From Monodelphis domestica (Eukaryota; Chordata; Mammalia; Didelphimorphia; Didelphidae), in assembly GCF_027887165.1 (NCBI RefSeq), contig NC_077234.1, positions 166,876,210 to 166,940,209 on the forward strand: 64,000 nucleotides of DNA, in the 5' to 3' direction. The position numbers were made by a program, and so were the translations under genes. This document shows, one piece after another, positions 12,932-53,527 of the stretch. The notes below the pieces were generated by a model that saw nothing but the letters and a program-made list of their open reading frames with translations, had not been told where the DNA came from and did no database searches. The first letter of the stretch is position 1. The number at the start of each line of letters is the position of its first letter.

Positions 12932-13135
12932 TTTTTTTTTAAACCCTTACCTTCCGTCTTGGAGTCAATACTGTGTATTGACTCCAAGGCAGAAGAGTGG
13001 TCAGGGCTAGGCAATGGGGGTCAAGTGACTTGCCCAGGGTCACACAACTGGGAAGTGTCTGAGGCCAGGTTTGAACCTAGGACCTCCTGTCTCTAGGCCT
13101 GGCTCTCAACACACTGAGCTACCCAGCTGCCCCCC
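12932..13135 (-). mobile_element. Well-preserved marsupial SINE with 12-bp target duplication
   Basis: On the minus strand it starts near 13135 with GGGGCAGCTGGGTAGCTCAG and has the B-box GGTTCAAACC and core CTGTGTGACCCTGGGC. It ends with the CCTTGGAGTCAATACAC ... AAGGTAAGGGTTT tail and a poly-A stretch (T-run in plus at 12928-12940). ACAAAAAGTTTT occurs on both sides (12920-12931 and 13136-13147), so it was inserted by LINE machinery into the L1-type element. It is one of the least diverged SINEs here. Confidence 0.92.
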
Positions 13136-15945: not shown

Positions 15946-16191
15946 TGATTATTTAGTTGTTTCAATTGTATTTAACTCTTTCAACCCTATTTGGGATTTC
16001 CCTGTGCAAAGATACTGATGTGGTTTGTCATTTCCATCTCCAGTTTCTTTTATAAATGAGGAAACTGAGGCAAATAGGGTGAAGTAACTTGTCCAAGGTC
16101 ACACAGCCAGTAAGTTTCTGAGGTTGGATTTGAACTCAGTTCTTCCTGTCTCCAGGCCTGATCCTCTATACAATGTGCTACCTGGTTGTCC
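15946..16191 (-). mobile_element. Marsupial SINE, antisense
   Basis: Minus-strand reading gives GGACAACCAGGTAGCACA, a B-box GTTCAAATCCAACC, CTGTGTGACCTTGGACAAG and TTTCCTCATTTATAAAAG, then the long-form tail. It is nearly complete. Confidence 0.88.
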
Positions 16192-17095: not shown

Positions 17096-17862
17096 TGATT
17101 CCATTGGGAAACAAGCATGTAGAAATCTTCCAGATTTATGTGCCTAGTTTCCCCAATGAATCAGTACACATAACCAACTTATATCTCTAAAGATCTTTAA
17201 CTAGAGATACATATAATATTGTACTTTCTAAGGGAAATCAAAATAATATGGGAATGAGAGGGAAATAAAAGAGAAAGAGAAGAAAATCAATGTTAGGTAC
17301 ATTGACTAAAAGCCAATAAGAGGGCTTTTCCAATCCCTTTGGCATTAGAGAGTACAGTCAAAATAAATGTGTTCAATCACCCACAGTTCAATACACTACA
17401 ATCCAAAGTTCATTCTGGATCTTTTGTGTAGTGTGTGGTTTCTGCAGGTTTCTTTATGATGCCTTCTCCAAACAGTTCACTTTCTCGATTCAGGGAGGTA
17501 GCAAGTTTCTTATCCTAAAATTACTCTCAAACAAGAAAAAATTTTATAAATCTAGAATTTTATGATAATAATACAATCCCCACTGAGGAGGATGTTGACT
17601 AACACACAGATCACCCTGGGATACATGACCAAGTTATGAAGTATATGAATCAATTGTCAACAGAAAATTAAAAAAAAATCAGAAAAACCCAAATAAAAGA
17701 GAAAAAAGTAACTTCTGGATGAAACATAAAATATAAAAGTCTTATGTAAAACAATTCTAAGGTAAGAAGAACAAATCTATAATAGGTCCTAGAATCAAGG
17801 CCCAATTAAAGTGATTTATGTCCCCCAAGCAATTTTGTAGTAGCAATTTTGCCCTTGCTCAA

Positions 17863-18204
17863 TCAGCAGCCAGCACTACAGAAAATTGCCACACTATGAA
17901 AGAGAGAGAAAAGGACTAGATTTTGAAGCAGAAGGGAAATATCATTCCCTGGTCTGATTTTTATCTTTGCTCTCAGGGGTAGGGGAGCCAAGATGGCAAC
18001 CAAACTGAGGTACTTGATAGAAGTCTGGATCTGGCATGAGGGAATCCTGCATCTGACTTTGTAAACATCCTCTTCCTTAAATCCTAAAATAAGTTCAAGT
18101 CCCCTGTCTTGTTGCAGAATCTCATCAATCCCACCAGTATTGGTTAGTTTCCTTGAACTTTTGCTCTTTGGCACTATGCAGGTTAACTTTGTGCTCCTTG
18201 GCAC
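17863..18204 (-). pseudogene. Element B 3' internal frame (decayed)
   Basis: This 113-residue frame has no recognisable domain. Near its C-terminus it contains PGNDIS, which aligns by position and DNA context with the GNDISPSK end of the 286-residue protein of element A. Flanking DNA (for example GGAAATRTCATTCCCT) is also shared. It probably represents the decayed 3' end of the same internal gene. The start chosen by the frame is not meaningful. I cannot infer a function. Confidence 0.4.
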
Positions 18205-19784: not shown

Positions 19785-20479
19785 TGTGAATTTTAAAACT
19801 ACTCCACCCTACTCAAACCATACTTTAGAAGATCTGATTTAGGTATTTCCTGATTAGTAACAATGGAGATACTTGGTTTAACAGAATCAGGTCTTGGGAA
19901 CTCTACATTGCTCCACCCTACTTAGTTTAACAAGGTCAAGAATGTCTGAACTATACTCAAGGATTAAGTATCTGTGGAAATGGCCTTCAACAGATATGTG
20001 CAGAAACAGTGGACAGACCCCTGGGCTGTCCTAAGTCAAGCTAAGCTATCATTGGTACCGATAAGATGCAGGAAAGTGACATAAAACCGTCTATATAAGG
20101 CATGTCACTTCCTCTCTTCTCCCTCTTTTCCCAGAGAGGCGACTCTGCTTGGCAGCATGCTAAGCATTCTGACATCTTGGCGTGGTGGCAGCTATTTGTC
20201 TGGGTTTGGTGGTGAGTTTGCCCTTGAACTGATTCAGGTTCAGGCATCTTGGCTGAGCCCTTTTGGAGTTCAGGTTGATTCCTTCCTCCTTACTCTCCAA
20301 AACCTTACCTTCCTAGAGCCTCTGGTCTTCCTCCTGGCACTAGCCTTGTGAGAGAATCCTACACTCTTTCCTTCTTCCTTCTTCTTAATTTCTTTCCACT
20401 ATATATATATATTTGGGATATCCATGGTGACCAAGTAATTGACATAGTTTAGGTCACAACGCTAAAATTATCCTTTACA
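19785..20479 (+). mobile_element. Solo LTR with GAAC target duplication
   Basis: It runs from TGTGAATTTTAAAACTAC to CCTTTACA, 695 bp, flanked by GAAC on both sides (19781-19784, 20480-20483). It includes a TATA-like CTATATAAGGC at about 20091 and the superfamily block GGTGACCAAG near the 3' end. It is about 87% similar by eye to the LTR at 24684. It lies inside element B in opposite orientation, so it inserted later and then lost its internal region by LTR recombination. Confidence 0.88.
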
Positions 20480-20646
20480 GAACTTAAAAAAAAACAAAAT
20501 TTAATTTTAAAACAAACAATCAGCAAATACAATATATATGACAGGATGTGAGCAATGAATTCAAGAGTCTTTTTCTCCAATTCTGATAGCTGTGTTACAG
20601 AGACTTCTTCACTATTTGGAGGGGAACAAACTGAAACAGTTAACAA
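20480..20646 (-). pseudogene. Element B frame with one membrane segment, cut by solo LTR
   Basis: On the minus strand an ATG at 20646 opens a frame with a polar N-terminus (about 35 residues). A hydrophobic segment HILSYILYLLIVCF and basic residues follow. The frame enters the solo LTR at 20479 and stops. A short N-terminus, a membrane segment and basic residues recall the start of the element A protein, but no residue-level homology is evident. The true extent before the insertion is unknown. Confidence 0.3.
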
Positions 20647-21383
20647 TCAGGCAAATGAAGTCTGAAAAGGCTTAAAATTCACCTCCAGAGAGTTTTAAGG
20701 TTCCTTCCCGTCCCGAGTGTCATCATCCAACTAGATTCCTTTGGTCATACTTCTGGGGTTCCCCATACCTGTACTGAACATAGTATGAATGAACCCCATA
20801 TTGGATGTGTTTCAGAGACTAGGCAGGGAAAATAGCAAGGGGATTTAGGGAGATGAATCTCCCCTCTGATTCTTGAGATTACTCAATCTATCAACTGAAA
20901 GGTATTCAATCAGTACACCCAGGAACTAGTAAGAAAAGACACCCTAAAACTTTGAGCTGTGCAAGCTTTCTGGGAATAGGACCTGTTTGAGATTGGCGGG
21001 AAACTGGGCCATGCTTGCAATTTGATTTCCTGTCATAGGTGGCACTACCCTAGTATGTACTGACTAAAGTTAAGAGGTTTGGAAGAATAACCTTCCTTCC
21101 TTCTCCTCCCCCCAAGGGGTAAAAACCCTAGGGAGCCACTTGCTTGACTTCTGCTCCCTTTGATTGCTCTCCACAGCTATGTGGGAAGGGAGTTAAGAGG
21201 GGGGAAGCTTGCCCTCAGGTGAAATCCCTGGGGAAAGTAATTGTTACCTAAGAGAAATATCCAGGCTTCCAAGGCAGCAGCAAGTACTCAGTTATTAGCA
21301 ATGTAATGGAAAGGGGAAATTCATACTTCATCAGCCACATGGAAAACAGCTCCCCAGGACCCCCAGCCAGTGTCTGGTGAAAC

Positions 21384-21460
21384 ATGGTAGGCAGTGGCAG
21401 CAATGGCAGCAGCAGTAGCAATAGTGGTGGTGGCAGCGGTGGTGGTGATGGCAAAGGTAG
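21384..21460. repeat. GGC/AGC/GGT trinucleotide-rich tract
   Basis: Imperfect GGCAGCAGY and GGTGGTGGC triplets lie in the 5' leader of element B. The poly-Gly/Ser or poly-Leu/Pro frames on either strand come from the triplet repetition. Confidence 0.8.
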
Positions 21461-21633
21461 GTGGGTGGTTGCAGGTTTGGCTCCTCCCATTGGTGGGTCC
21501 CCACCACTGAGAAGAGTACCCCAGAGGGGGAGGGTGAAAAGGGCTAGGGCAGAGAGGAAACATGTTTTTTTTTAAAATAATCTACTTCCTATCTTTACTC
21601 AAAGGCTGTCTTAAAACAAGATCAAAGATTCTA

Positions 21634-21650
21634 TCCCTCCATGGTTGCCA
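21634..21650 (-). promoter_or_regulatory. Element B primer-binding-like site
   Basis: The plus strand reads TCCCTCCATGGTTGCCA, ending in CCA five bases from the LTR edge. From family knowledge this resembles the 3' end of a tRNA-Arg (about 14 of 17 positions as I recall it). A minus-strand element would use its complement to bind that tRNA as reverse-transcription primer. Confidence 0.5.
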
Positions 21651-21655
21651 AACAA

Positions 21656-21956
21656 TGTAAAATTTATATTAATATCTAATAACTCCAAGTATAATATTTT
21701 ATAAGATTTATTAATAATCACTTAAAGTAGAATAAATAAAAGAAACAAAATTAGAAAGCATAAATAGAAAAGACATGGGTAAAAATTTCCTGCCTGGCTC
21801 TAACCCAAACTCCACAACTGCATTTCCAAGAGAAGAGAGAGAGAGCAAGGAGGGAGCTACACAAAGCTTATATCCTCCCTATGTTAGCACATAACATGAG
21901 AAGAAACATGGGAAGCCAGAAAAGAGATTCCCTGGGAAGCAAATCCTAATTACACA
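21656..21956 (-). repeat. Element B 5' LTR
   Basis: It is 301 bp, from TGTAAAATTTATATTAATAT to TACACA (plus reading). In element orientation AATAAATCTTATAAAA near 21700-21715 supplies a polyadenylation signal. Confidence 0.8.
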
Positions 21957-22059
21957 ATTAAAGTACACTTACCATGGTTTCCATGGTCCTTTACATCACC
22001 TGAATTTTTAACACATCTGGGATAGTGGTAAGCTTGTTCGATCAGAAAATTTTAATCCC

Positions 22060-23515
22060 AACAATTTCAGAATATAATACACCAATAATACCCATAAAGA
22101 AAGAAAAACATGACTCTGAAGGAAAAGTTCAATAGAGACTGATCCAAGATTTAAGAGCAGTAAAAAACTTTGTAAAAAAGTTCCATGCAGTCATTCCAAG
22201 CCCATCTAAAATAATTTCAGAAATTCCAAGTAAATCTAGATATTATACCATTGTTGATCTAATCTTTGCTTTCACTTGGAATGGGATTCAGCTGACAAAG
22301 GAGATATTACCAGTGGGATTCTGTGATAGCCCAACAGCATTTTTCCAAATCTTGCAACAAGATTAAAAGAACATCCAATTCAAAGAAAGCAGAGTCATGC
22401 ACTATGTGGATGACATTCTTCTTGCATCCCCATATGCTAAAGTTTGTTACCAGGACAGTAAAAATACTCCTCCTAGAGCTATATAAGAAAGGCCACAAAG
22501 TTTCCAAATCAAAGCTACAATGGGTTATGCTTAAAGTTGAATGCTTAGGATTTATCTTTGAAAAGGTGACAGGAAAGATTTCCAAGAAAAGAGTAGAAGA
22601 TAGACAAAAGCTCAGCGTGCCAAAGACTAAGAACCAACTGAGAGCCTTTTTAGGAGTAACAGGTTTCTGTAGACAATGGATCCCAGGCTATAACCAAATA
22701 ACAAAATGCCTTATGGACTTAACCAAAAACACAGTCACAGAAACTTTGAAACTAATAAAAGAGCATCTACAAGCCTTGGCATAGTTCAAAGAAGCAATCA
22801 TAATAGCTCCAGTCTTAGATATTCCAGACTACAACAAAGAATTTCACCTCTGTACATGAAGCAAGAGTCATAGCTTCTGGAGTGTTAGTTCAAACTTTAA
22901 GACCCAATTTTAGGCCAATGCCATATTATTATAGTACACAGCTATATATAATTGAGAAAGTAGTGATTCCCTGTTTGAGAGTAATTGCAACCATAGCAAC
23001 CATGATTCAAAAATTATCTGATTTGGTATTAGGATCAAAATTTTATGTCTACTCTCCACACCAACTAGAATCCATATTGAAGAAATGTCATTTACAAGCT
23101 TGCACACAGCAAAGACTTTCTCAATATGAAATTGTGTTACTAAGCAATGAAAACATCACTTTAAAACATTGCCAACCATTGAATCTGTCAACCTTGATTA
23201 ACAAAATATATACAAGCTTTACAAACAAGAATAGCAGAGTTGCATGAAATGGGCTCGATACAACAAACAATACCCCTGGATTACAATGTGCACAATATCA
23301 AACAGGAGACAAAGTATACTTAAAAAATTTCAATAGAAAATTGGCTACAGACATAAAAATGAACTGGACCACATGAAGTATTGCTTACTACCACAACAGC
23401 TATAAAAATTGCAAGGAAAGACTCATGGTTCCACTGTTCTCACATAAAACCAGAAAAATCCAACATCACTGTAACAGACATAGAAGAAGAAGAGTTACAC
23501 AAAAGATAGTGCTGA
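22060..23515 (+). pseudogene. Element C: decayed gamma-type retroviral pol
   Basis: An old endogenous retroviral polymerase gene, not functional. Frame 2 shows a reverse-transcriptase core with VDLIFAFTW around 22254 and the catalytic-loop motif YVDDILLASP at 22403. After a frameshift near 22450, frame 3 carries the thumb/connection region, including LRAFLGVTGFCRQWIPGY near 22640. A further shift leads to the RT-RNase H connection in frame 1 (22882-23240). The RNase H and integrase catalytic cores appear to be deleted. Near 23310-23510 the integrase C-terminal part returns (GDKVYLKNFNRKLATD, then SWFHCSHIKP), itself split by a stop and a shift. In-frame stops are present. Gag and protease are absent upstream because element B adjoins. 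Confidence 0.85.
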
Positions 23516-24683
23516 AAAATGAAAACAAAAACTGATTAACATCAAAAGGTACACCATACAGAAACATTAGTGACACATAATGTTCAAGACCACAAGATCC
23601 GATCCCAACAGTTAAGCATACCACAGCGACAAGGAGAAGTCAACTTTCCAGTCCAGAGGAAAAGATTTTAAAGCATCCCAAAAGAAAAGCATCAAGAAAA
23701 GCTGCTAGAGAAAAGAGATAAAGAGAAAAAGATGAAATGGACAGCTAAGGCTTTGAACTTTGCAAATTTGTTTATAGAAGAAGATGGAAAACAGGACTTA
23801 TATGTAAGACTGAGTGTGGTGAAATCATAAAACAAAATTAATTTCACATATTAGTGAAATAGCATGCAGCATTACATAACTTGGAAGAAAGAAGAGATCC
23901 ATTTGTCAGCATGAGAAGTGGAAATCTGAAGAAACTTGATAAGTATTCATTCAACAAAACACTATTAGACACAAAACATAACATTACAAATTGACATATA
24001 TTGGGAGATTTTGTGTAAATAAATGAGTGTCTGAAATTGCATTTATGCAAAATGCAAATATGTATATAGTTAGTTCCATAAGGTCTTAGGCAAATAGAAA
24101 GATCAATAGATATTTCTATTTGACTGACATCAGGATGTGGGAACAATGTATATTATTGTTATTATTACATATGTTATTACATATTATTATATGTAAATAA
24201 TCTCCATAAATTATTTATATACTATAATTAGGCTAGTAACAGTGATAGGGTCTGTAAATATGTAACATAGCATGTATGTATGTTGTACATAAGATTAGGT
24301 TATAGATTAGACTGGAGACTTAGAGAATAATTATAATAAGTAGGGATTAGATTAGGAGTAAATTATGTGAAGCATAGCATAAAGAGTTATACTTAGGAAT
24401 AGACTTAAGCTGCATTTGTAGATAGTAAACTTTTAATTGTTTATTGTAAAGGTGATCCTGAAATTGTGTTTAATGGAAATATATGTAGATAAAATATATA
24501 GATAAAATAGTTTGCAAATAATTATAGATATATAAAATAGGAAAAATGTATGTTTAACTTAGCAAGAGTAAGTAGTATTAGAATTAAGATTCAAATTTCT
24601 TTGTAACATTTATTGTACTGAATTTATTGTAAAACCCTAAAACTATCCTTACCCAAAATTTCCTGCATAGAATTCCTTAGAGT
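23516..24683 (+). other. Element C 3' internal remnant
   Basis: This AT-rich sequence lies between the integrase remnant and the LTR. A Lys-rich frame around 23720-23830 might be a fragment of a 3' gene, but no envelope hallmark (signal peptide, furin site, fusion peptide) is visible. No clear polypurine tract precedes the LTR. Confidence 0.4.
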
Positions 24684-25406
24684 TGTGAATTTTAAAACTA
24701 TTCCCCACTAATCAGACCATTCTTTAGAAGATCTGATTTAGCTATTTCCTGATCAACAACAATGGAGATACTTGGAATAACAGAATCAGGTCTTGCAAAC
24801 TTTACATTCTCAACCTTCTTAGTTTAACAAGATTAGGAAGGTCTGCATCAAACTCAAGATTTAATTATCTGAGGAAATGGCCTTCAACAGACATGTGCAA
24901 AAAAAAAGGACAGACCTCTGGGCTATCCTAAGTCAAGCTAAGTCATCATTGGTACAGATGAGATGCAGGAAAGTGATGTAAAACTGCATATATAAGGCAC
25001 ATCACTTCCTCTCTCCTCTTCTTTCCCCAGAGAGACAACTCTGGCTGGCAGCATGGTGGCAGCTATTGTCTGGGTTTGGTGGTGAGTTTTGCCCTGGAGC
25101 TGATTTCAGATTCGGGCATCTTAGCTGAGCCCCTTTGGAGGTCAGGCTGATTCTTTCCTCCTTCATACTCCAAAACCTTATCTCCTAATCCCCTTCTCGG
25201 TACCAGCCAGGTGTGTGTGTGGGGGGGAGGAGGGGGAGAAAACCTATTCCTTTCCTTCTTTCTTCTCCTTAATCTCCTCCACTATCAATTAAAACAACAT
25301 AAAATTTCCAGCTGACTTGGTTTTTTTATTAGGATTTTATAAATTAAATCCTTGGCGACCAAAATAATTATTACATTCAGTCTCAGCCATAATTTTACCC
25401 TTTACA
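24684..25406 (+). repeat. LTR of element C (3' LTR)
   Basis: It is 723 bp, from TGTGAATTTTAAAACTATTC to CCCTTTACA. It has a TATA-like CATATATAAGGC near 24990, and CCTTGGCGACC near the 3' end as in the other family members. A G-rich insertion lies near 25210. Its place downstream of the plus-strand pol makes it the 3' LTR of element C, though an independent solo LTR cannot be ruled out since the flanks share no duplication. Confidence 0.8.
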
Positions 25407-25791
25407 GAGTAGATAAAGTTAGCATAGAATAGTGATAGAGTAATTGAGGGAAATTTATTATTTTGGGGGGAGTAGTTAGAAAGTAGATTTAGTAGCTTGG
25501 TAAGTATAATAAATATGTGGCCTTGGGAAGGTCACAATAAAAAAAGGGGATGATTGTGGAAAGGAAGACTGAGTCAAGCTCTGGACTTTCTGCCACTGAG
25601 TTAGAGCAAACAGCAGTTGGAAGGTTAGAGAGAAATTGATGGACAGCAATTATAGTTGGTGGGGGGAGGGGGACTTTGAGAGTGACACTTGGTCTTGAAG
25701 GCTCTCTTTCCTGGCCCTCAAACTAGAAGGAGCTCTCTCTCCCTATCTTGGGATAGAAGTACCCCTATTCCTGATTTTCCTAACTATGTGC
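25407..25791. other. Unassigned spacer between LTRs
   Basis: Short purine-rich stretches occur. No family was recognised. Confidence 0.4.
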
Positions 25792-26520
25792 TGTGAATTT
25801 TAGATTTACTCTACCCTGCTTAGTCTTTAGAATTCTAGCAATCAGGAATATATACACCCCCCACTTAAGGATTAACTGTAGGGGAGGATGGCCTATGACC
25901 ATCATGTGCTAGCAAGTGACAAATCAGAAACAACTGACTGACCCCCTGAACTATCCTAAGCCAAGCTTTCCACCATTGGTACATGTGAGACACAGGAAGT
26001 GATATAAAGAACTGCCTATATATTTCATGTCATTTCCTGTGAGAGTCTCTATCTTGGTGGCATTGGGAGATTTTGGCAGCGTTTGGTGTGCTTGGGGTTT
26101 TGGTGGATTTGGTGTTGGAGTTTATGGGGAGGAGCTCTATAGCATGGTCTAGGTGAGGCAATTTCCATGAATCGGACTTGGTGAGTGAGAAGACTGACTC
26201 CCCTTTTCCATGACCCTCTGAGGGTACTATTCTCCTCCAAGGCCTTTCATCTTGGAGGAGGCCTCGTGGCCGGAAGCCAAGCTAGATTTAATCTTCTGAG
26301 AAGGCCACTTGGCTGAGGCCTCTGAAATCCCCTTGGCTTAGGCCAGGCCAGAGCAGATCTTCTACTCTTTCCCTCTTCTTCTTCTTAATTTCTTCCTTCT
26401 ATTGTAAATAAACCACCATAAAATCCCATACTGACTTGAGTATTTCATTGGGATTGAATTTAAATCCCTGGCAACTAATATGCTATATTCAGTCTCAACC
26501 CCTAAATTTCACCCCTAACA
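25792..26520 (+). mobile_element. Solo LTR, A/C superfamily, older subfamily
   Basis: It runs from TGTGAATTTTAGATTTAC to CACCCCTAACA, 729 bp. It contains CCTATATATTTCAT (TATA-like), TTGTAAATAAACCACC (polyadenylation signal near 26405) and CCCTGGCAACTAATATGC near the end. Flanks GTGC (25788-25791) and GAGC (26521-26524) agree at three of four bases, compatible with a decayed 4-bp target duplication. Confidence 0.82.
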
Positions 26521-30885: not shown

Positions 30886-31237
30886 AAAGACAGAATTTTG
30901 TTAAAGCCCAGAGTTCTGAGTTTCCTATACATCCTATATGAATATAAACATATATATGTACATATATGTGTGTATATAGACACATACACTGTTAAATCCT
31001 GGAGGGGAATGTAAAGTAATTTTGAACATTTGTTAGTTGGGTCATGCCTAAAGGCAACCTTCTATCTTACAATATTTTCTTAGAGAACATAAGGAAAGAG
31101 GAAGACTTTTTTAGTTGAGTAATGCTACAGAAATGTTAATGATTAGTTCAGAGGGATGCTTTGATCTTAGCCCTCTAAATGATGGGAAACAATGATATTT
31201 AGATTGCAAATAGGTGATATCCTTTTTTGATTGAAGA

Positions 31238-32201
31238 TGTAACAAGGGAATCACTTTAAAAGACTGATATATATTAATTTAAGGTCGCCAAGGAATCAGC
31301 TATGTAATTCCTAAATGAAAAACTCAAGTCAGCCGTCAGCCTTTTTTGGAGTTTAATTACAATAGGAGCAAGAAAAGAATTAGAGATATATATAGAGAGA
31401 GAAAGGGGAGAGAAGGGAATAGGGCTTAAATACCCCTTCTGTTTAGGCTGGGCCAAAAGGCCCAAGCCCTTAGATAGCTGGGGCAAAGAAAGGAGATCAG
31501 TCCCTTTCACTCACGTGTCCAAAATGGAGAAACAGTCTCAGAGGCCCCCACCTTCAGCTTCCTTCAGAGCAAGCTTCCTCAGAGCCCAGGAACCACCGAC
31601 CAAAAAACTCCACCCCCCTCGAGTCTCCAGACCCTCCTATCTTTAAGGAAACCATCCAAGTTGCCTCCCCTCAGTCCTCACATCTACCAATCACTCTTCA
31701 TCAATTTCCCTGTCAATGGAGGCTCTCGCTTAACCCAGGACCGCCCAGAGGTTTCTGGCTTTTGCACATGTCCGTTGAAGGTCATATTTTTCAAATGATT
31801 AAATCTTTACTCTTTTGTTACAGCCCTTTCTAAATCCTGTTAACTTGAGTATGGTAGAGATTGGAATAATTAAATTTTGATCTAGGCTGCAGCCCTTACT
31901 CAATCCTATTAGGACTGAATAGGGTGGAGATTTATTCCAAGTATCTCCATTGTATCAATTCTAAAATCAATCAAGACTCAAAGAAATTCCTGTTCTATGC
32001 TCAAGCATAGGTCAAAGTCCTTTCCATTGTTCAGCAAAGGGTTTCTGTCCTAAAGTAATCTTAAGAAGGGAAGAGAAGGAACCTCCCATGCCAATGGGGT
32101 TCCCATTCCAATAGACTATCAGTAAGAAATTTTCCAAGTATGAAATATCCCAATGGTGAAATTTCCAACATTTATAAGTCTAAGGAATTTTGAGGTTTAC
32201 A
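31238..32201 (-). repeat. Element A 3' LTR
   Basis: Its plus reading is TGTAACAAGG ... GAGGTTTACA. In element orientation a TATA-like TATTTAA (31425-31431) is followed about 70 bp on by the polyadenylation signal ATTAAA (31352-31357) and the superfamily block CCTTGGCGACC (near 31290). The 78-residue frame 31274-31510 recurs in the other LTR and is non-coding. Confidence 0.93.
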
Positions 32202-32210
32202 ATCCCCCCT
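32202..32210 (-). promoter_or_regulatory. Element A polypurine tract
   Basis: The minus strand reads AGGGGGGAT directly before the 3' LTR start TGTAAACCTC. This is where plus-strand DNA priming would occur. Confidence 0.8.
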
Positions 32211-32978
32211 GATGATCATTGGGAGACTAGTCTCCCCATTGATCATTTAACATAATCATTTTGTAGTTCTAAATTCACTTCTAACTAAAGATATACACAA
32301 TATTCAATTTTCTAAGAGAAATTAGAATAGTGAGAGAGGAAATAGAAAAGAAAAGAAAGCAAAACCAATGTTTGCTAGGCGCATTGACAGAAAGCCAAAT
32401 TAGGGGCAGTCCCTTTTGGCATAAATGTTACAATAAATGTTCAATCAAAAGTTCAGTCCAATCAATCACATCCAAAGTTCATTCTTGATCTTCTTGATGA
32501 AGTGTAGGTTTTTGGCATCTTTCTGCAACAGTTCATTCTCTGGATATAAAAGTTTCAAGCTTCTTTCTTGAAGATCTTTTCTTGAACAAAATCAAAATCT
32601 TTGAATTTTTTATAAAAGTAAAATCTTAAACAAAAGTCTTGGATTTTTATAAAAATAAAATCTCAAACAAAAAAAATTCAAAAATTCTTAGATTTTAAAT
32701 TAATATACAATCCCCCCTGAAGTAAGTATTAAAAAAATAATATCAAGTTAAGCTCAGAATGCAATGTTCAGGTATGGGGTTGTATGTGTCAATTATCAAA
32801 AAAATAGAAAAATAATCAAAAACATAAGAAAATTTCAAAATAGACCTTGTATAGGTCCAGTTTAAAGTAATTTCTATCCCACAAGTATGTAGGACAGAAT
32901 GCAGTAATATTTCACTTAGCCATTTGTAGCCAAGACTACAGGAAGTTGCCATAATATAAGAAGAAAAGAATTAGAATT
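32211..32978 (-). other. Element A 3' untranslated internal region
   Basis: About 770 bp lie between the stop codon of the heptad protein and the 3' LTR. They have no frame of note but are recognisably homologous along their length to 17087-17930 of element B. A second copy of the purine tract (AGGGGGGATT on the minus strand, 32709-32718) lies within it. Confidence 0.75.
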
Positions 32979-33839
32979 CTATTTTGATGGGGAAATGTCA
33001 TTCCCTTGCATTGGAATTTGGTTTTCTGTAGGAGAAGGAACATGAGAAGCTGGGATTGCAGGGGAAGGGTTTTGGGGATTAAATTCAGACAAGATTTGCA
33101 CTGCACGAGAGAAGCAGTCTGTTAACTGGGCTATAGGGAAGGTGTTTTCCATCTCTATTTCAGGGAAGGAAATTTCCTCATTCAAAGGTTCAGAAACAGG
33201 TCTGTTTCTGGTAGAGTGGTTGTTTGCCCATTGATCCTGTAAGAAACATTTTAGATCTTCTAATTGGGCTTGCATTTTATCCTCAATTTTTCCTATTTTA
33301 TCTTCCATATCTCCCATTTTATCCTCAATATTTCCTATTTTATTCTCAATATTTCCTATTTTATCCTCAAGTTTTTCTATTTTATTCTCAATATTTCCTA
33401 TTTTATCCTCAATTTTTTCTATTGTATCCTCAATTTTTTCTATTGTATCCTCAATTTTTTCTATTTTATCCTCAATATTTTCTATTTTATCCTCAATATT
33501 TTCTATTTTATCCTCATTTTTTTCTATTTTATCCTCAACATTTTCTATTTTATCCTCAATATTTTCTATTTTATCCTCATTTTGTTTTATTTTATCCTCA
33601 TTTTGTTTTATTTTATCCTCATTTTGTTTTATTTTATCCTCATTTTGTTTTATTTTATCCTCAATATTTTTTATTTTTTCATCTCTAAATATAGTATTGA
33701 GGAGTACAAAAATGACAGTACCTATTAATATAAAAATTTGGAGGTATCCTTCATTCCTCAATGCCCCTACTTCTTCAGCTGCCATATAATTGTCAAAGAA
33801 TGTAGTACTCATTTTTATATGTATATTTTGTAATTTCAC
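32979..33839 (-). CDS. Membrane-anchored heptad-repeat protein of element A
   Basis: An uninterrupted 286-codon frame in the sense direction of element A. Residues 1-31 are polar with net negative charge; a second Met at position 10 is an alternative start. Residues 32-51 (YLQIFILIGTVIFVLLNTIF) form one strong membrane segment, followed by basic residues, which favours an N-outside, C-inside topology. Residues 54-206 consist of about 20 tandem heptads of the form KIENIED or KIKQNED, with Ile at one core position and Ile, Asn or Leu at the other. This predicts a long coiled coil. Residues 207-286 are Pro/Ser/Glu-rich and end GNDISPSK. One Cys lies at 198 and one at 242. It matches no retroviral structural protein I know: no zinc knuckle, protease, or envelope hallmark. 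Its place about 490 bp after the 5' LTR is that of gag. Function unknown. Confidence 0.75.
   Translation of the reverse strand: MKLQNIHIKMSTTFFDNYMAAEEVGALRNEGYLQIFILIGTVIFVLLNTIFRDEKIKNIEDKIKQNEDKIKQNEDKIKQNEDKIKQNEDKIENIEDKIENVEDKIEKNEDKIENIEDKIENIEDKIEKIEDTIEKIEDTIEKIEDKIGNIENKIEKLEDKIGNIENKIGNIEDKMGDMEDKIGKIEDKMQAQLEDLKCFLQDQWANNHSTRNRPVSEPLNEEISFPEIEMENTFPIAQLTDCFSRAVQILSEFNPQNPSPAIPASHVPSPTENQIPMQGNDISPSK
33262..33690 (-). repeat. 21-bp coding minisatellite (about 20 units)
   Basis: The DNA behind the coiled coil is a tandem array with a 21-bp period (GAGGATAAAATAGAAAATATT type on the minus strand). Groups of units are identical, for example four KIKQNED-encoding copies in a row near 33575-33665. 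The multiple-of-three period keeps all units in frame. Phe/Tyr-rich frames on the plus strand are shadows of this array. Confidence 0.92.
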
Positions 33840-33883
33840 AAAACACGTGGGGAGCAGGGCAAAGCAACAAACTTTCCACAGGG

Positions 33884-34106
33884 TTTTTTTTTTTTTTTTA
33901 ATCCAGGAAGTTGTTCCTTAAGGGAAAGGATATTTAGAAACAGTTCTTCCAGCCAGGACTTTAGAGTCCTGTTGCTGAGATTTAAAAACAGCTGTTTTCT
34001 GTCTATCAGAGTCACACAGCTGGGAAGTATCTGAGGTCCGATTTGAACCCAGGACCTTCTGTCTCTAGGCCTGGCTCTCAATCCGCTGAGCTACCCAGCT
34101 GTCCCT
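33884..34106 (-). mobile_element. SINE head fused to non-SINE tail with poly-A, inside element A
   Basis: On the minus strand 34106-34010 is a clean SINE head: GGGACAGCTGGGTAGCTCAG, B-box GGTTCAAATC, CAGCTGTGTGACT. Instead of the usual core, about 110 bp of unrelated sequence follows (34009-33901) and then A17 (33884-33900). It lies in the 5' leader of the element and must have been captured before the last transposition. No target duplication was found. Confidence 0.65.
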
Positions 34107-34306
34107 TAAGATTAAAGGGAAGAAAAAGAAAAAAACTGCTGATTCCAATTTAACTTAAGGAGAAAAGAGAAAAAGTTTTTTATACTCACGTGTTCTAGCA
34201 GCTGTGTCTTTAAGCCGAGTTTTTTGTTAAAAAAAAAGGACTAAGTGGTGAAACAGTATAGTAAAAAGGCAAGGAATTTCAAAAGTTTTATTGAGAGGAT
34301 TCTTTA

Positions 34307-34326
34307 GACTCCCGTGTGGTCAGCCA
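34307..34326 (-). promoter_or_regulatory. Element A primer-binding-like site
   Basis: The plus strand reads GACTCCCGTGTGGTCAGCCA, ending CCA three bases from the 5' LTR. It can be aligned to a tRNA-Arg 3' end with small gaps, or less well to tRNA-Glu. The TCCC...GTGGTC...GCCA skeleton is shared with element B. Confidence 0.5.
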
Positions 34327-34329
34327 CAA

Positions 34330-35293
34330 TGTAACAAGGGAATCACTTTAAAAGACTGATATATATTAATTTAAGGTCGCCAAGGAATCAGCTATGTAAT
34401 TCCTAAATGAAAAACTCAAGTCAGCCGTCAGCCTTTTTTGGAGTTTAATTACAATAGGAGCAAGAAAAGAATTAGAGATATATATAGAGAGAGAAAGGGG
34501 AGAGAAGGGAATAGGGCTTAAATACCCCTTCTGTTTAGGCTGGGCCAAAAGGCCCAAGCCCTTAGATAGCTGGGGCAAAGAAAGGAGATCAGTCCCTTTC
34601 ACTCACGTGTCCAAAATGGAGAAACAGTCTCAGAGGCCCCCACCTTCAGCTTCCTTCAGAGCAAGCTTCCTCAGAGCCCAGGAACCACCGACCAAAAAAC
34701 TCCACCCCCCTCGAGTCTCCAGACCCTCCTATCTTTAAGGAAACCATCCAAGTTGCCTCCCCTCAGTCCTCACATCTACCAATCACTCTTCATCAATTTC
34801 CCTGTCAATGGAGGCTCTCGCTTAACCCAGGACCGCCCAGAGGTTTCTGGCTTTTGCACATGTCCGTTGAAGGTCATATTTTTCAAATGATTAAATCTTT
34901 ACTCTTTTGTTACAGCCCTTTCTAAATCCTGTTAACTTGAGTATGGTAGAGATTGGAATAATTAAATTTTGATCTAGGCTGCAGCCCTTACTCAATCCTA
35001 TTAGGACTGAATAGGGTGGAGATTTATTCCAAGTATCTCCATTGTATCAATTCTAAAATCAATCAAGACTCAAAGAAATTCCTGTTCTATGCTCAAGCAT
35101 AGGTCAAAGTCCTTTCCATTGTTCAGCAAAGGGTTTCTGTCCTAAAGTAATCTTAAGAAGGGAAGAGAAGGAACCTCCCATGCCAATGGGGTTCCCATTC
35201 CAATAGACTATCAGTAAGAAATTTTCCAAGTATGAAATATCCCAATGGTGAAATTTCCAACATTTATAAGTCTAAGGAATTTTGAGGTTTACA
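34330..35293 (-). promoter_or_regulatory. Element A 5' LTR (promoter-bearing)
   Basis: As far as I can see it is identical to the other LTR. As the 5' copy for a minus-strand element it supplies the promoter: the TATA-like TATTTAA falls at 34517-34523 and the polyadenylation signal ATTAAA at 34444-34449. A G/C palindrome, GGGCCTTTTGGCCC in element orientation, sits just upstream of the TATA. Confidence 0.88.
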
Positions 35294-35774
35294 AAGATTA
35301 GCTATATTCTACTTATAACCAGTCGGGTTCCACAACTACATAGATGATGTATAGTTGAAAATTCTCAAATTCACCAAATTATTTCATCTTTCAAATATTT
35401 GACCTAATTTGCCCTCAGAATTATTCTAGTTTTAAAGAGTTTGCTCACTACTACAGACTCACTTTCTTTTCTTTTCAAGTCATCTGTCTCTGCCACTTAA
35501 AAATTTTAAAGTATGTTTTATGATAATTCTATAAAATGTGAAGAGGATTTAAAATTTTTCATTTATTGGATCTTATTATTTGGGACTCTAAGCTATTTTT
35601 TCTGAAACTTTTGGTGAAATGTAAGCCTGACGTCTGTTAATATTAACCTGACCTGACTAAAACAGACTCATGGAATAATAATATTAAAGGAAGACTTTTG
35701 ACATTCCTGAGACTAGAAAACAAATGAGAGGAAGAAGGGACTATAGAACATACATCAGAGTGTAACCAATGAAG

Positions 35775-44273: not shown

Positions 44274-44554
44274 CTCCTTTTTCTCCTCTGTTCCTTTTTT
44301 TTCATCTTCTTGAGTCCTGGTTCGAAAGAACTATGATTGCACAAACACATTTTGGATAGGTAATGGTAAATAGGGGGAACCAGTCAGTGTTTTAAGAATT
44401 TATTAATAAAATGGAAAGGTGAGAGAGGAGAGAGAGAAGAGATAGACAGATTATAGATTCTCCATTTAGCTGAAGCAATACTGGCAGTCATTCTCTTCAA
44501 GAGCAGAAGTCCAGAGCCCCTCATGCTTCTCTTGCTGGCCTTATATATTAGATC

Positions 44555-45023
<469 letters not shown>

Positions 45024-53408: not shown

Positions 53409-53527
53409 TAAACAGGGTTAAGTGACTGCCTAAAGTCACACAGTTTGTAAGTGTCTGAGGTGAGATTTGAACTCAGGTCTTCTTGACTCCAGATCTGGCT
53501 CTCTATCTATTATGTCACCTAGCTGCC
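53409..53527 (-). mobile_element. Marsupial SINE head, antisense
   Basis: Minus strand: GGCAGCTAGGTGACATAATA, GTCAAGAAGACCTGAGTTC, ACTTACAAACTGTGTGACTTT. The tail is lost. Confidence 0.82.

What the first reader, a model, noticed from the sequence alone, without database searches (positions are those of the whole stretch)
32979..33839. Intact transmembrane plus long heptad-repeat protein as the only gene of a fresh LTR element
Seen: one open frame of 286 codons in the sense of element A, with a single membrane segment (residues 32-51), about 20 tandem heptads (54-206) and a Pro/Ser-rich tail. Known: retroviral internal genes are gag, pol and env, or accessory genes such as protease-processed cores. 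None that I know has this layout. Inference: the protein is an element-encoded membrane scaffold, or perhaps an interference factor acting on membranes like other anchored coiled-coil proteins, kept by selection or at least not yet decayed. It sits at the gag position with no gag present.
Basis: partly seen in the sequence, partly recalled or inferred. Interest (0 to 1): 0.85.

Follow-up and report, generated by a model that had tools for sequence, protein, structure and literature searches.

The report
Clipped membrane-anchored Gag of opossum retrovirus
The open frame is the front end of a retroviral Gag protein, cut off by a deletion in one very young opossum retrovirus copy, and the family's full Gag is unusual because a membrane helix and a rod of variable length stand where the matrix domain is expected.

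Summary
In detail: on the minus strand an open frame (277 codons from the first ATG, 286 from GTG) encodes one hydrophobic helix, about 20 heptads and a Pro/Ser-rich tail, between identical LTRs (964/964, TSD AAGA). "No gag present" is wrong. The frame is the first 270 codons of gag plus 7 read past a deletion. The junction has 7 bases shared by both parents and was found in no other copy (1 of 40 scored matches). In other copies the same frame continues into capsid (Gag_p30) and a zinc knuckle, unbroken for 675-696 codons in 5 of 7 copies read. So this protein is a by-product of deletion. Its layout is the normal Gag N-terminus of a many-copy, very young class I ERV of Monodelphis domestica, without env in the 4 copies read downstream. 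A similar helix lies before capsid in 11 of 12 relatives examined; the long heptad array is recent, and among 15 open sampled copies its length differs only in steps of seven residues (about 2 to 22 heptads). Best reading: the helix replaces the myristoylated matrix as membrane anchor, the heptads space the capsid from it; an IAP-like switch to intracellular life in a gamma-like lineage. Topology, site and function are untested.

The parts
34330..35293 (-). 5' LTR of element A (element sense is minus)
   Evidence: 964/964 identical to the other LTR; TG...CA ends
31238..32201 (-). 3' LTR of element A
35294..35297 (.). target site duplication AAGA (copy 1)
31234..31237 (.). target site duplication AAGA (copy 2)
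33813..34329 (-). leader between 5' LTR and gag ATG; 33840-34329 matched over its whole length at 94-99% in 7 of 9 other gag loci (L002-L007, L010) and in part in L008 and L011
33990..34110 (-). SINE-like, tRNA-derived repeat inside the leader (kind of repeat recalled, not tested): full in 7 of 9 other loci, part in L008, not found in L011
   Evidence: repeated elsewhere in the window
32979..33812 (-). open frame from first ATG: truncated Gag, 277 aa plus stop
33687..33746 (-). membrane helix (predicted), residues 23-42
33261..33680 (-). 20 heptads, residues 45-184
33003..33260 (-). Pro/Ser-rich linker, residues 185-270; in other copies followed by capsid
33002..33008 (-). 7-base microhomology CAAGGGA at the deletion junction
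32979..33002 (-). 7 codons (NDISPSK) and stop, read from sequence that lies downstream of pol in L015
32202..33002 (-). 3' internal region, downstream of pol in L015; no env
   Evidence: 97.1-98.5% identical to L012-L015
32202..32211 (-). polypurine tract (AGGGGGGAT) next to the 3' LTR; a second copy of the motif at about 32710-32718
   Evidence: direct reading

Best explanation
Element A is a single, internally deleted copy of a very young, many-copy, env-less class I (gamma-like) endogenous retrovirus of Monodelphis domestica. Its open frame is the N-terminal 270 residues of that family's Gag. Reverse transcription most likely jumped across 7 shared bases (inferred), removing capsid, nucleocapsid, pol and about 0.6 kb of 3' sequence. 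In the full Gag, the N-terminal helix most likely acts in place of the myristoylated matrix domain (inferred). It inserts with its short acidic N-terminus outside and the rest in the cytosol (weak charge rule), the heptads form a parallel coiled-coil rod of about 20 nm, and the capsid domain assembles at its end on an internal membrane, most likely the ER. With no env and no recognised late-domain motif, the family would spread inside the cell. The truncated protein itself keeps anchor and rod but no capsid, so it is inert or at most a poison of Gag assembly.
For: SHOWN: the one hit for the C-terminal 92 residues (2 candidates) is an opossum protein with the same N-terminus that runs on into Gag_p30. 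P0004 carries nearly the same heptad array, then Gag_p30 (2.8e-14) and a CX2CX4HX4C knuckle; its capsid matches PDB chain 6hwx ('Putative gag polyprotein', 4.4e-13). In the genome 5 of 7 other copies read (L002-L008) have one frame from MSTT through the knuckle, 675-696 aa; L003 and L005 are frameshifted. Junction: 1 of 40 scored matches spans it, the other 39 end there (1570 candidates; same, 466 candidates). No env: in 4 of 4 downstream pieces the forward strand has no frame of 90 codons between the end of pol and the 3' LTR; in L015 both strands were read and the longest frame is 80 codons. Pol of L015 has RVP, RVT_1, RNase_H, rve and MLVIN_C, in the gag frame of L004 after one stop. TM: in 20 of 20 sampled copies and 11 of 12 relatives found with P0003. 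FOR THE ANCHOR ROLE (inference): the TM is the only strong hydrophobic stretch of the 5 full Gags (next best 0.68), which also lack PTAP/PSAP, PPxY and YPxL. Capsid is constrained: dN/dS 0.11-0.59 in the 7 of 11 comparisons where it could be computed, the other 4 saturated. Flank charges fit C-side-in: -2/+1 in the window copy; C side more positive in 8 of 9 distant loci, equal in L019 (read straight through stops).
Against: No experiment on membrane insertion, topology or site. The N-terminus and TM show no amino-acid constraint: dN/dS 1.71 for L025 and 0.79 (4 changes) for L027; L010 and L011 have 4 and 2 nonsynonymous and 0 synonymous changes there; 9 distinct nonsynonymous and 0 synonymous among near copies over N-terminus and linker. 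Retained hydrophobicity alone is weak evidence: a neutral simulation reaches L025's value in 6.7% of runs. The annotated Gag P0004 begins inside the array, without the helix. In the distant loci the hydropathy scan lists several hydrophobic stretches per locus, in several frames; I picked the one that looked alike, and some of these have stops nearby. L022 showed no such helix. A profile of the 9 distant segments finds L025 (5.6e-8) but not the window's own helix (E 0.82, rank 6), so that homology rests on L025 as a bridge. Intactness of young copies does not prove function.
Confidence: 0.8

Rival explanations
1. The truncated TM-heptad protein is itself a functional interference factor, co-assembling with full Gag through the rod and poisoning particles, and kept for that reason.
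For: It keeps anchor and rod and loses capsid and nucleocapsid, the layout expected of a dominant negative; precedents are Gag-derived restriction genes such as Fv1 (abstract start in the listing).
Against: Junction found in this copy alone among the matches scored; LTRs identical, so no time for selection to show; N-terminal changes show no constraint; no expression data.
Confidence: 0.05
2. The helix belongs only to a minor Gag form, as in MLV glycoGag, and a second, cytosolic Gag starting downstream is the structural one.
For: P0004 is modelled from a methionine inside the array, without the helix. MLV makes both forms (passages of PMC12530543). 2 of 20 sampled copies (L030, L039) have no ATG at the expected place.
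Against: No matrix domain recognised between helix and capsid: Pfam at E 0.001 shows only Gag_p30, RVT_1 and matches to the heptads. The helix follows an ATG in 18 of 20 sampled copies. A downstream start would leave no recognised membrane-binding part.
Confidence: 0.2
3. The heptad array is a neutral minisatellite that happens to stay in frame; the young family spreads with it by chance. (This concerns the array only and can hold together with the best explanation of the helix.)
For: Array length differs widely, about 2 to 22 heptads, and short-array copies also have helix and linker in one open frame; variation between units is mostly nonsynonymous (by eye).
Against: The a and d positions of the array keep Ile, Asn, Val, Leu or Met. 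That the spacer of 15 of 15 open copies differs by multiples of 7 residues is not evidence of selection, since a 21-bp unit gives it anyway. Not decisive.
Confidence: 0.4

Closest known systems
Gammaretroviral Gag (MLV type)
   Same: Gag_p30 capsid, one CCHC knuckle, pol in the gag frame after a stop (one copy), MLV-type integrase C-terminus
   Different: No recognised matrix domain, start MST rather than the MG needed for myristoylation (motif recalled), TM helix plus heptads instead; no PPxY/PTAP/YPxL in 5 full Gags; no env in 4 copies read
IAP / MusD intracellularised ERVs of mouse
   Same: Loss of env and an altered Gag N-terminus that changes trafficking (abstract and introduction passages of PMC3197615); young, many copies
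   Different: IAP and MusD are class II and IAP Gag enters the ER by a signal sequence (both recalled). Here the lineage is class I, with a predicted TM helix and a rod
MLV glycoGag
   Same: A Gag form with one N-terminal TM helix (passages of PMC12530543)
   Different: glycoGag starts at an upstream CUG and still contains MA, and its topology is debated (same passages); here the helix is at the gag ATG and nothing recognised as MA follows
SnRV / OVEX1 Gag
   Same: Gag presumed not myristoylated, with an N-terminal coiled coil (passages of PMC2717909)
   Different: Polybasic N-terminus; no TM helix mentioned in the passages seen; other pol lineage
Foamy virus Gag
   Same: Putative N-terminal coiled coils and no standard matrix targeting (passages of PMC3705266)
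   Different: Foamy Gag lacks a membrane signal and depends on Env (same passages); here the predicted anchor is in Gag and there is no Env
Tetherin/BST-2
   Same: TM helix followed by a coiled coil (recalled)
   Different: No C-terminal anchor here; sequence is Gag

Membership tests
Class I (gamma-like) ERV Gag | Gag_p30 capsid domain | tested here: met
   P0001 2e-6, P0002 5.3e-13, P0003 4.3e-11, P0004 2.8e-14; not in the window ORF itself, which is cut before it
Class I (gamma-like) ERV Gag | CCHC knuckle | tested here: met
   P0004 residues 523-536; CHFCEKKGHK in frame in 5 of 5 full Gag frames read
Class I (gamma-like) ERV Gag | pol in the gag frame after a stop codon | tested here: met
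   one copy only, L004/L015
Class I (gamma-like) ERV Gag | myristoylated matrix domain | tested here: not met
   No Gag_MA hit at E 0.001 for P0001-P0004, nor among the 25 of 125 families shown for the ORF; N-terminus MST. A matrix fold too diverged for Pfam is not excluded
Class I (gamma-like) ERV Gag | late-domain motif | tested here: not met
   no PTAP/PSAP, PPxY or YPxL in 5 full Gags
Intracellularised ERV (IAP/MusD-like mode of life) | env lost | tested here: met
   4 of 4 downstream pieces have no forward frame of 90 codons between pol end and LTR; L015 longest frame 80 codons on both strands. No profile search for env was run on this stretch
Intracellularised ERV (IAP/MusD-like mode of life) | Gag N-terminus retargeted to an internal membrane | not testable with these tools
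   TM helix predicted; site not predictable
IAP proper (class II) | class II pol/gag | tested here: not met
   Gag_p30 and MLVIN_C matches
MLV glycoGag | TM leader upstream of a complete MA-containing Gag | tested here: not met
   no MA recognised after the helix
Tetherin | second, C-terminal membrane anchor | tested here: not met
   no second hydrophobic segment; next best window 0.68 in the full Gag

The most novel reading that the evidence does not exclude
A whole lineage of marsupial class I retroviruses replaced the matrix domain by a transmembrane anchor and became an env-less intracellular parasite, independently of mouse IAP. In its youngest branch a heptad rod between membrane and capsid grew from about 2 to about 22 units in whole-heptad steps, making spacer length a rapidly evolving trait of the particle.
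Probability: 0.5. Interest if true: 0.75.

Novelty: new variant of a known kind. Interest (0 to 1): 0.58.

Why it matters
Retroviral Gag is usually taken to reach membranes through a lipidated or basic matrix domain. A capsid protein held by a true membrane helix and a rod of variable length would be another solution, found in a family young enough that the LTR pairs measured are identical or nearly so. It would give a class I example of how retroviruses turn into intracellular transposons, and natural length variants to test how far a capsid lattice can sit from its membrane.

Tried and rejected
Rejected: a separate accessory or captured host gene (the frame is continuous with capsid in other copies); a chance translation of a minisatellite (flanks conserved in protein); an intact gene of a proliferating deleted subfamily (junction seen once). 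Led nowhere: Pfam on the ORF alone (125 families at E<=1; none of the 25 shown is a retroviral family); IMG/VR scan with P0001 (9 pattern matches, none confirmed); Rfam over 31000-35600 (0 matches at E 0.1); a first motif search for the N-terminus of distant loci (motif missing in 7 of 12), replaced by a hydropathy scan. PBS: the sequence after the 5' LTR (TGGCTGACCACACGGGAGTC) was not assigned to a tRNA; no search was run. dN/dS inside the array was not computed; units turn over too fast for it to mean much. The heptad differences printed are one base too high for every copy (my arithmetic, checked by hand against the window copy); the frame test is the one used.

Full report
1. What is there. 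The frame is on the minus strand, 33812 to 32979 from the first ATG (277 codons; 286 from a GTG at 33839). It has a hydrophobic segment at residues 23-42 and 20 heptads, a/d positions 82% hydrophobic against a shuffle mean of 33%, and one predicted helix from residue 4 to 200. It lies between LTRs 31238-32201 and 34330-35293 that are identical at 964 of 964 positions, with an AAGA duplication. Zero differences puts the 95% upper bound of age near 0.5 million years if one assumes 3e-9 substitutions per site per year (hand calculation; rate assumed, not measured here).

2. What it is. Searching the C-terminal 92 residues gave one hit among two candidates: P0001, Monodelphis domestica LOC130457502. 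It shares the N-terminus (79% over 62) and linker (89% over 106) and continues into Gag_p30. Two further searches gave P0002 (capsid then reverse transcriptase), P0003 (55% identical in the aligned part) and P0004, a 650-residue Gag with nearly the same heptad array followed by capsid and a zinc knuckle, though modelled without the helix. So the finding's frame is the first 270 residues of Gag. The species is Monodelphis domestica: the window's assembly has a contig of 760810273 bases, the same length as the contig of P0001.

3. The deletion. A 302-base probe of the 3' half of the frame had 40 matches scored (of 1570 candidates): only the window's copy matches in full; the other 39 end at query base 279, window position 33002. 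A 101-base probe across the junction gave the same: 1 of 40 scored (466 candidates) spans it, 39 match the gag side only, to base 49 or 50. The two parents share CAAGGGA at the junction. The other side lies 578 bases after the end of the pol frame in L015. The last seven residues, NDISPSK, come from that side; an old fragment in the window, 17144-17950, shows the same sequence context at 62% identity.

4. The family. Of seven other copies read through gag (L002-L008), five have one frame of 675-696 codons; L003 and L005 are frameshifted. Of 129 gag matches scored (17745 candidates in the first look), 61 have an open frame of 650 codons or more in the tool's column, one of these 61 with a stop listed inside (counted). 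These matches were chosen by score, so this is not a random sample. Of four pieces read downstream, L015 has a 1118-codon frame, open at the start of the piece, with protease, RT, RNase H and integrase domains; L012 has only an integrase C-terminus (Pfam), L014 has the same frame end, and in L013 no pol frame of 90 codons was seen; P0002's RT matched L015 only. None of the four has a forward frame of 90 codons between pol and the 3' LTR, so no env (L015 on both strands). LTR differences in three copies were 1 of 455, 0 of 451 and 0 of 517 (5' LTR known in part only). So gag-bearing, pol-deleted copies seem to have spread too, presumably helped in trans (inference).

5. The N-terminus over time. 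Twelve relatives found with P0003 (50-61% identical to it) were examined. L027 and L025 match the window's N-terminus (87% over 60 and 46% over 41). Nine more (L016-L021, L023, L024, L026) have a hydrophobic segment that looks similar 449-525 bases before capsid; L022 does not. That scan also lists other hydrophobic stretches in these loci, so position and likeness, not hydropathy alone, carry the claim. A profile of the nine finds L025 at 5.6e-8, above all 629 window frames used as background, but finds the window's own N-terminus only at E 0.82, so the link runs through L025. Against L002, capsid shows constraint (dN/dS 0.11 L011, 0.15 L021, 0.19 L017, 0.25 L025, 0.34 L010, 0.36 L027, 0.59 L003; saturated in L016, L018, L024, L026), the linker less (0.40 L017, 0.57 L025, 0.60 L027; L010 and L011 3 and 5 nonsynonymous and 0 synonymous), the N-terminus none (1.71 L025, 0.79 L027; L010 and L011 4 and 2 nonsynonymous and 0 synonymous). 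Hydrophobicity stays high, but a neutral simulation reaches L025's value in 6.7% of runs, so constraint on the helix is likely, not proven.

6. The heptads. In 20 further copies taken at intervals from the list, 20 have the helix (18 with the ATG in place) and 15 have helix and linker in one open frame; the spacer in these 15 is 53, 67, 123, 130, 165, 172, 179, 186 or 193 residues, all in steps of seven; by the comparison the 179-residue copies have the window copy's length. L027 and P0001 have about two heptads. The long array is therefore probably a recent expansion. Ile at a, Ile or Asn at d and Glu and Lys at e and g suggest a parallel coiled coil; sequence matches in the PDB include tropomyosin, trimeric adhesin, reovirus sigma-1 and GCN4-type chains (strand numbers of those structures partly recalled), so the number of strands is open.

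7. How it may work. Shown: TM-heptad-linker-capsid-knuckle order, no env in the copies read, no recognised matrix or late domain. Inferred: the helix is the anchor; charge difference places capsid in the cytosol; assembly is at an internal membrane. The nearest precedent in print that I saw is IAP and MusD, where env loss goes with a changed Gag N-terminus (passages of PMC3197615); ER entry of IAP Gag is recalled. Ten paper searches (listings and abstract starts only) and passages of seven papers (PMC5696478, PMC8278194, PMC11334065, PMC2717909, PMC3197615, PMC3705266, PMC12530543) showed no description of such a Gag in opossum; the library is open-access only and no paper was read whole.

8. 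Verdict. The finding pointed at something real and named it wrongly. The deleted copy is ordinary in kind; the Gag architecture behind it is the interesting part.

Noticed in passing
window 17144-17950 (-): Old fragment 62% identical to the 3' internal region of element A, a decayed relative on the same strand.
   Followed up: partly
window 19860-26495 (+): Remains of an older class I ERV on the plus strand: RT fragment 22148-22811, 47-55% to P0002, with LTR-like stretches 19860-20079, 24759-24977 and 26380-26495.
   Followed up: partly
window 33990-34110 (-): The ERV family carries a SINE-like repeat in its leader; similar stretches at 13035-13133, 16098-16191 and 53410-53525.
   Followed up: partly
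L002, L006, L007, L008 after the gag stop; L012, L014: Gag-intact copies that share the same sequence after the gag stop and lack most of pol: apparently a spreading gag-only subfamily.
   Followed up: partly
window 32710-32718 (-): A second copy of the polypurine motif about 500 bases before the one at the LTR; a similar GGGGATTGTA stretch is in the old fragment at about 17575.
   Followed up: no
window 44553-45023: Long (TCTT)n tract open in several frames.
   Followed up: no
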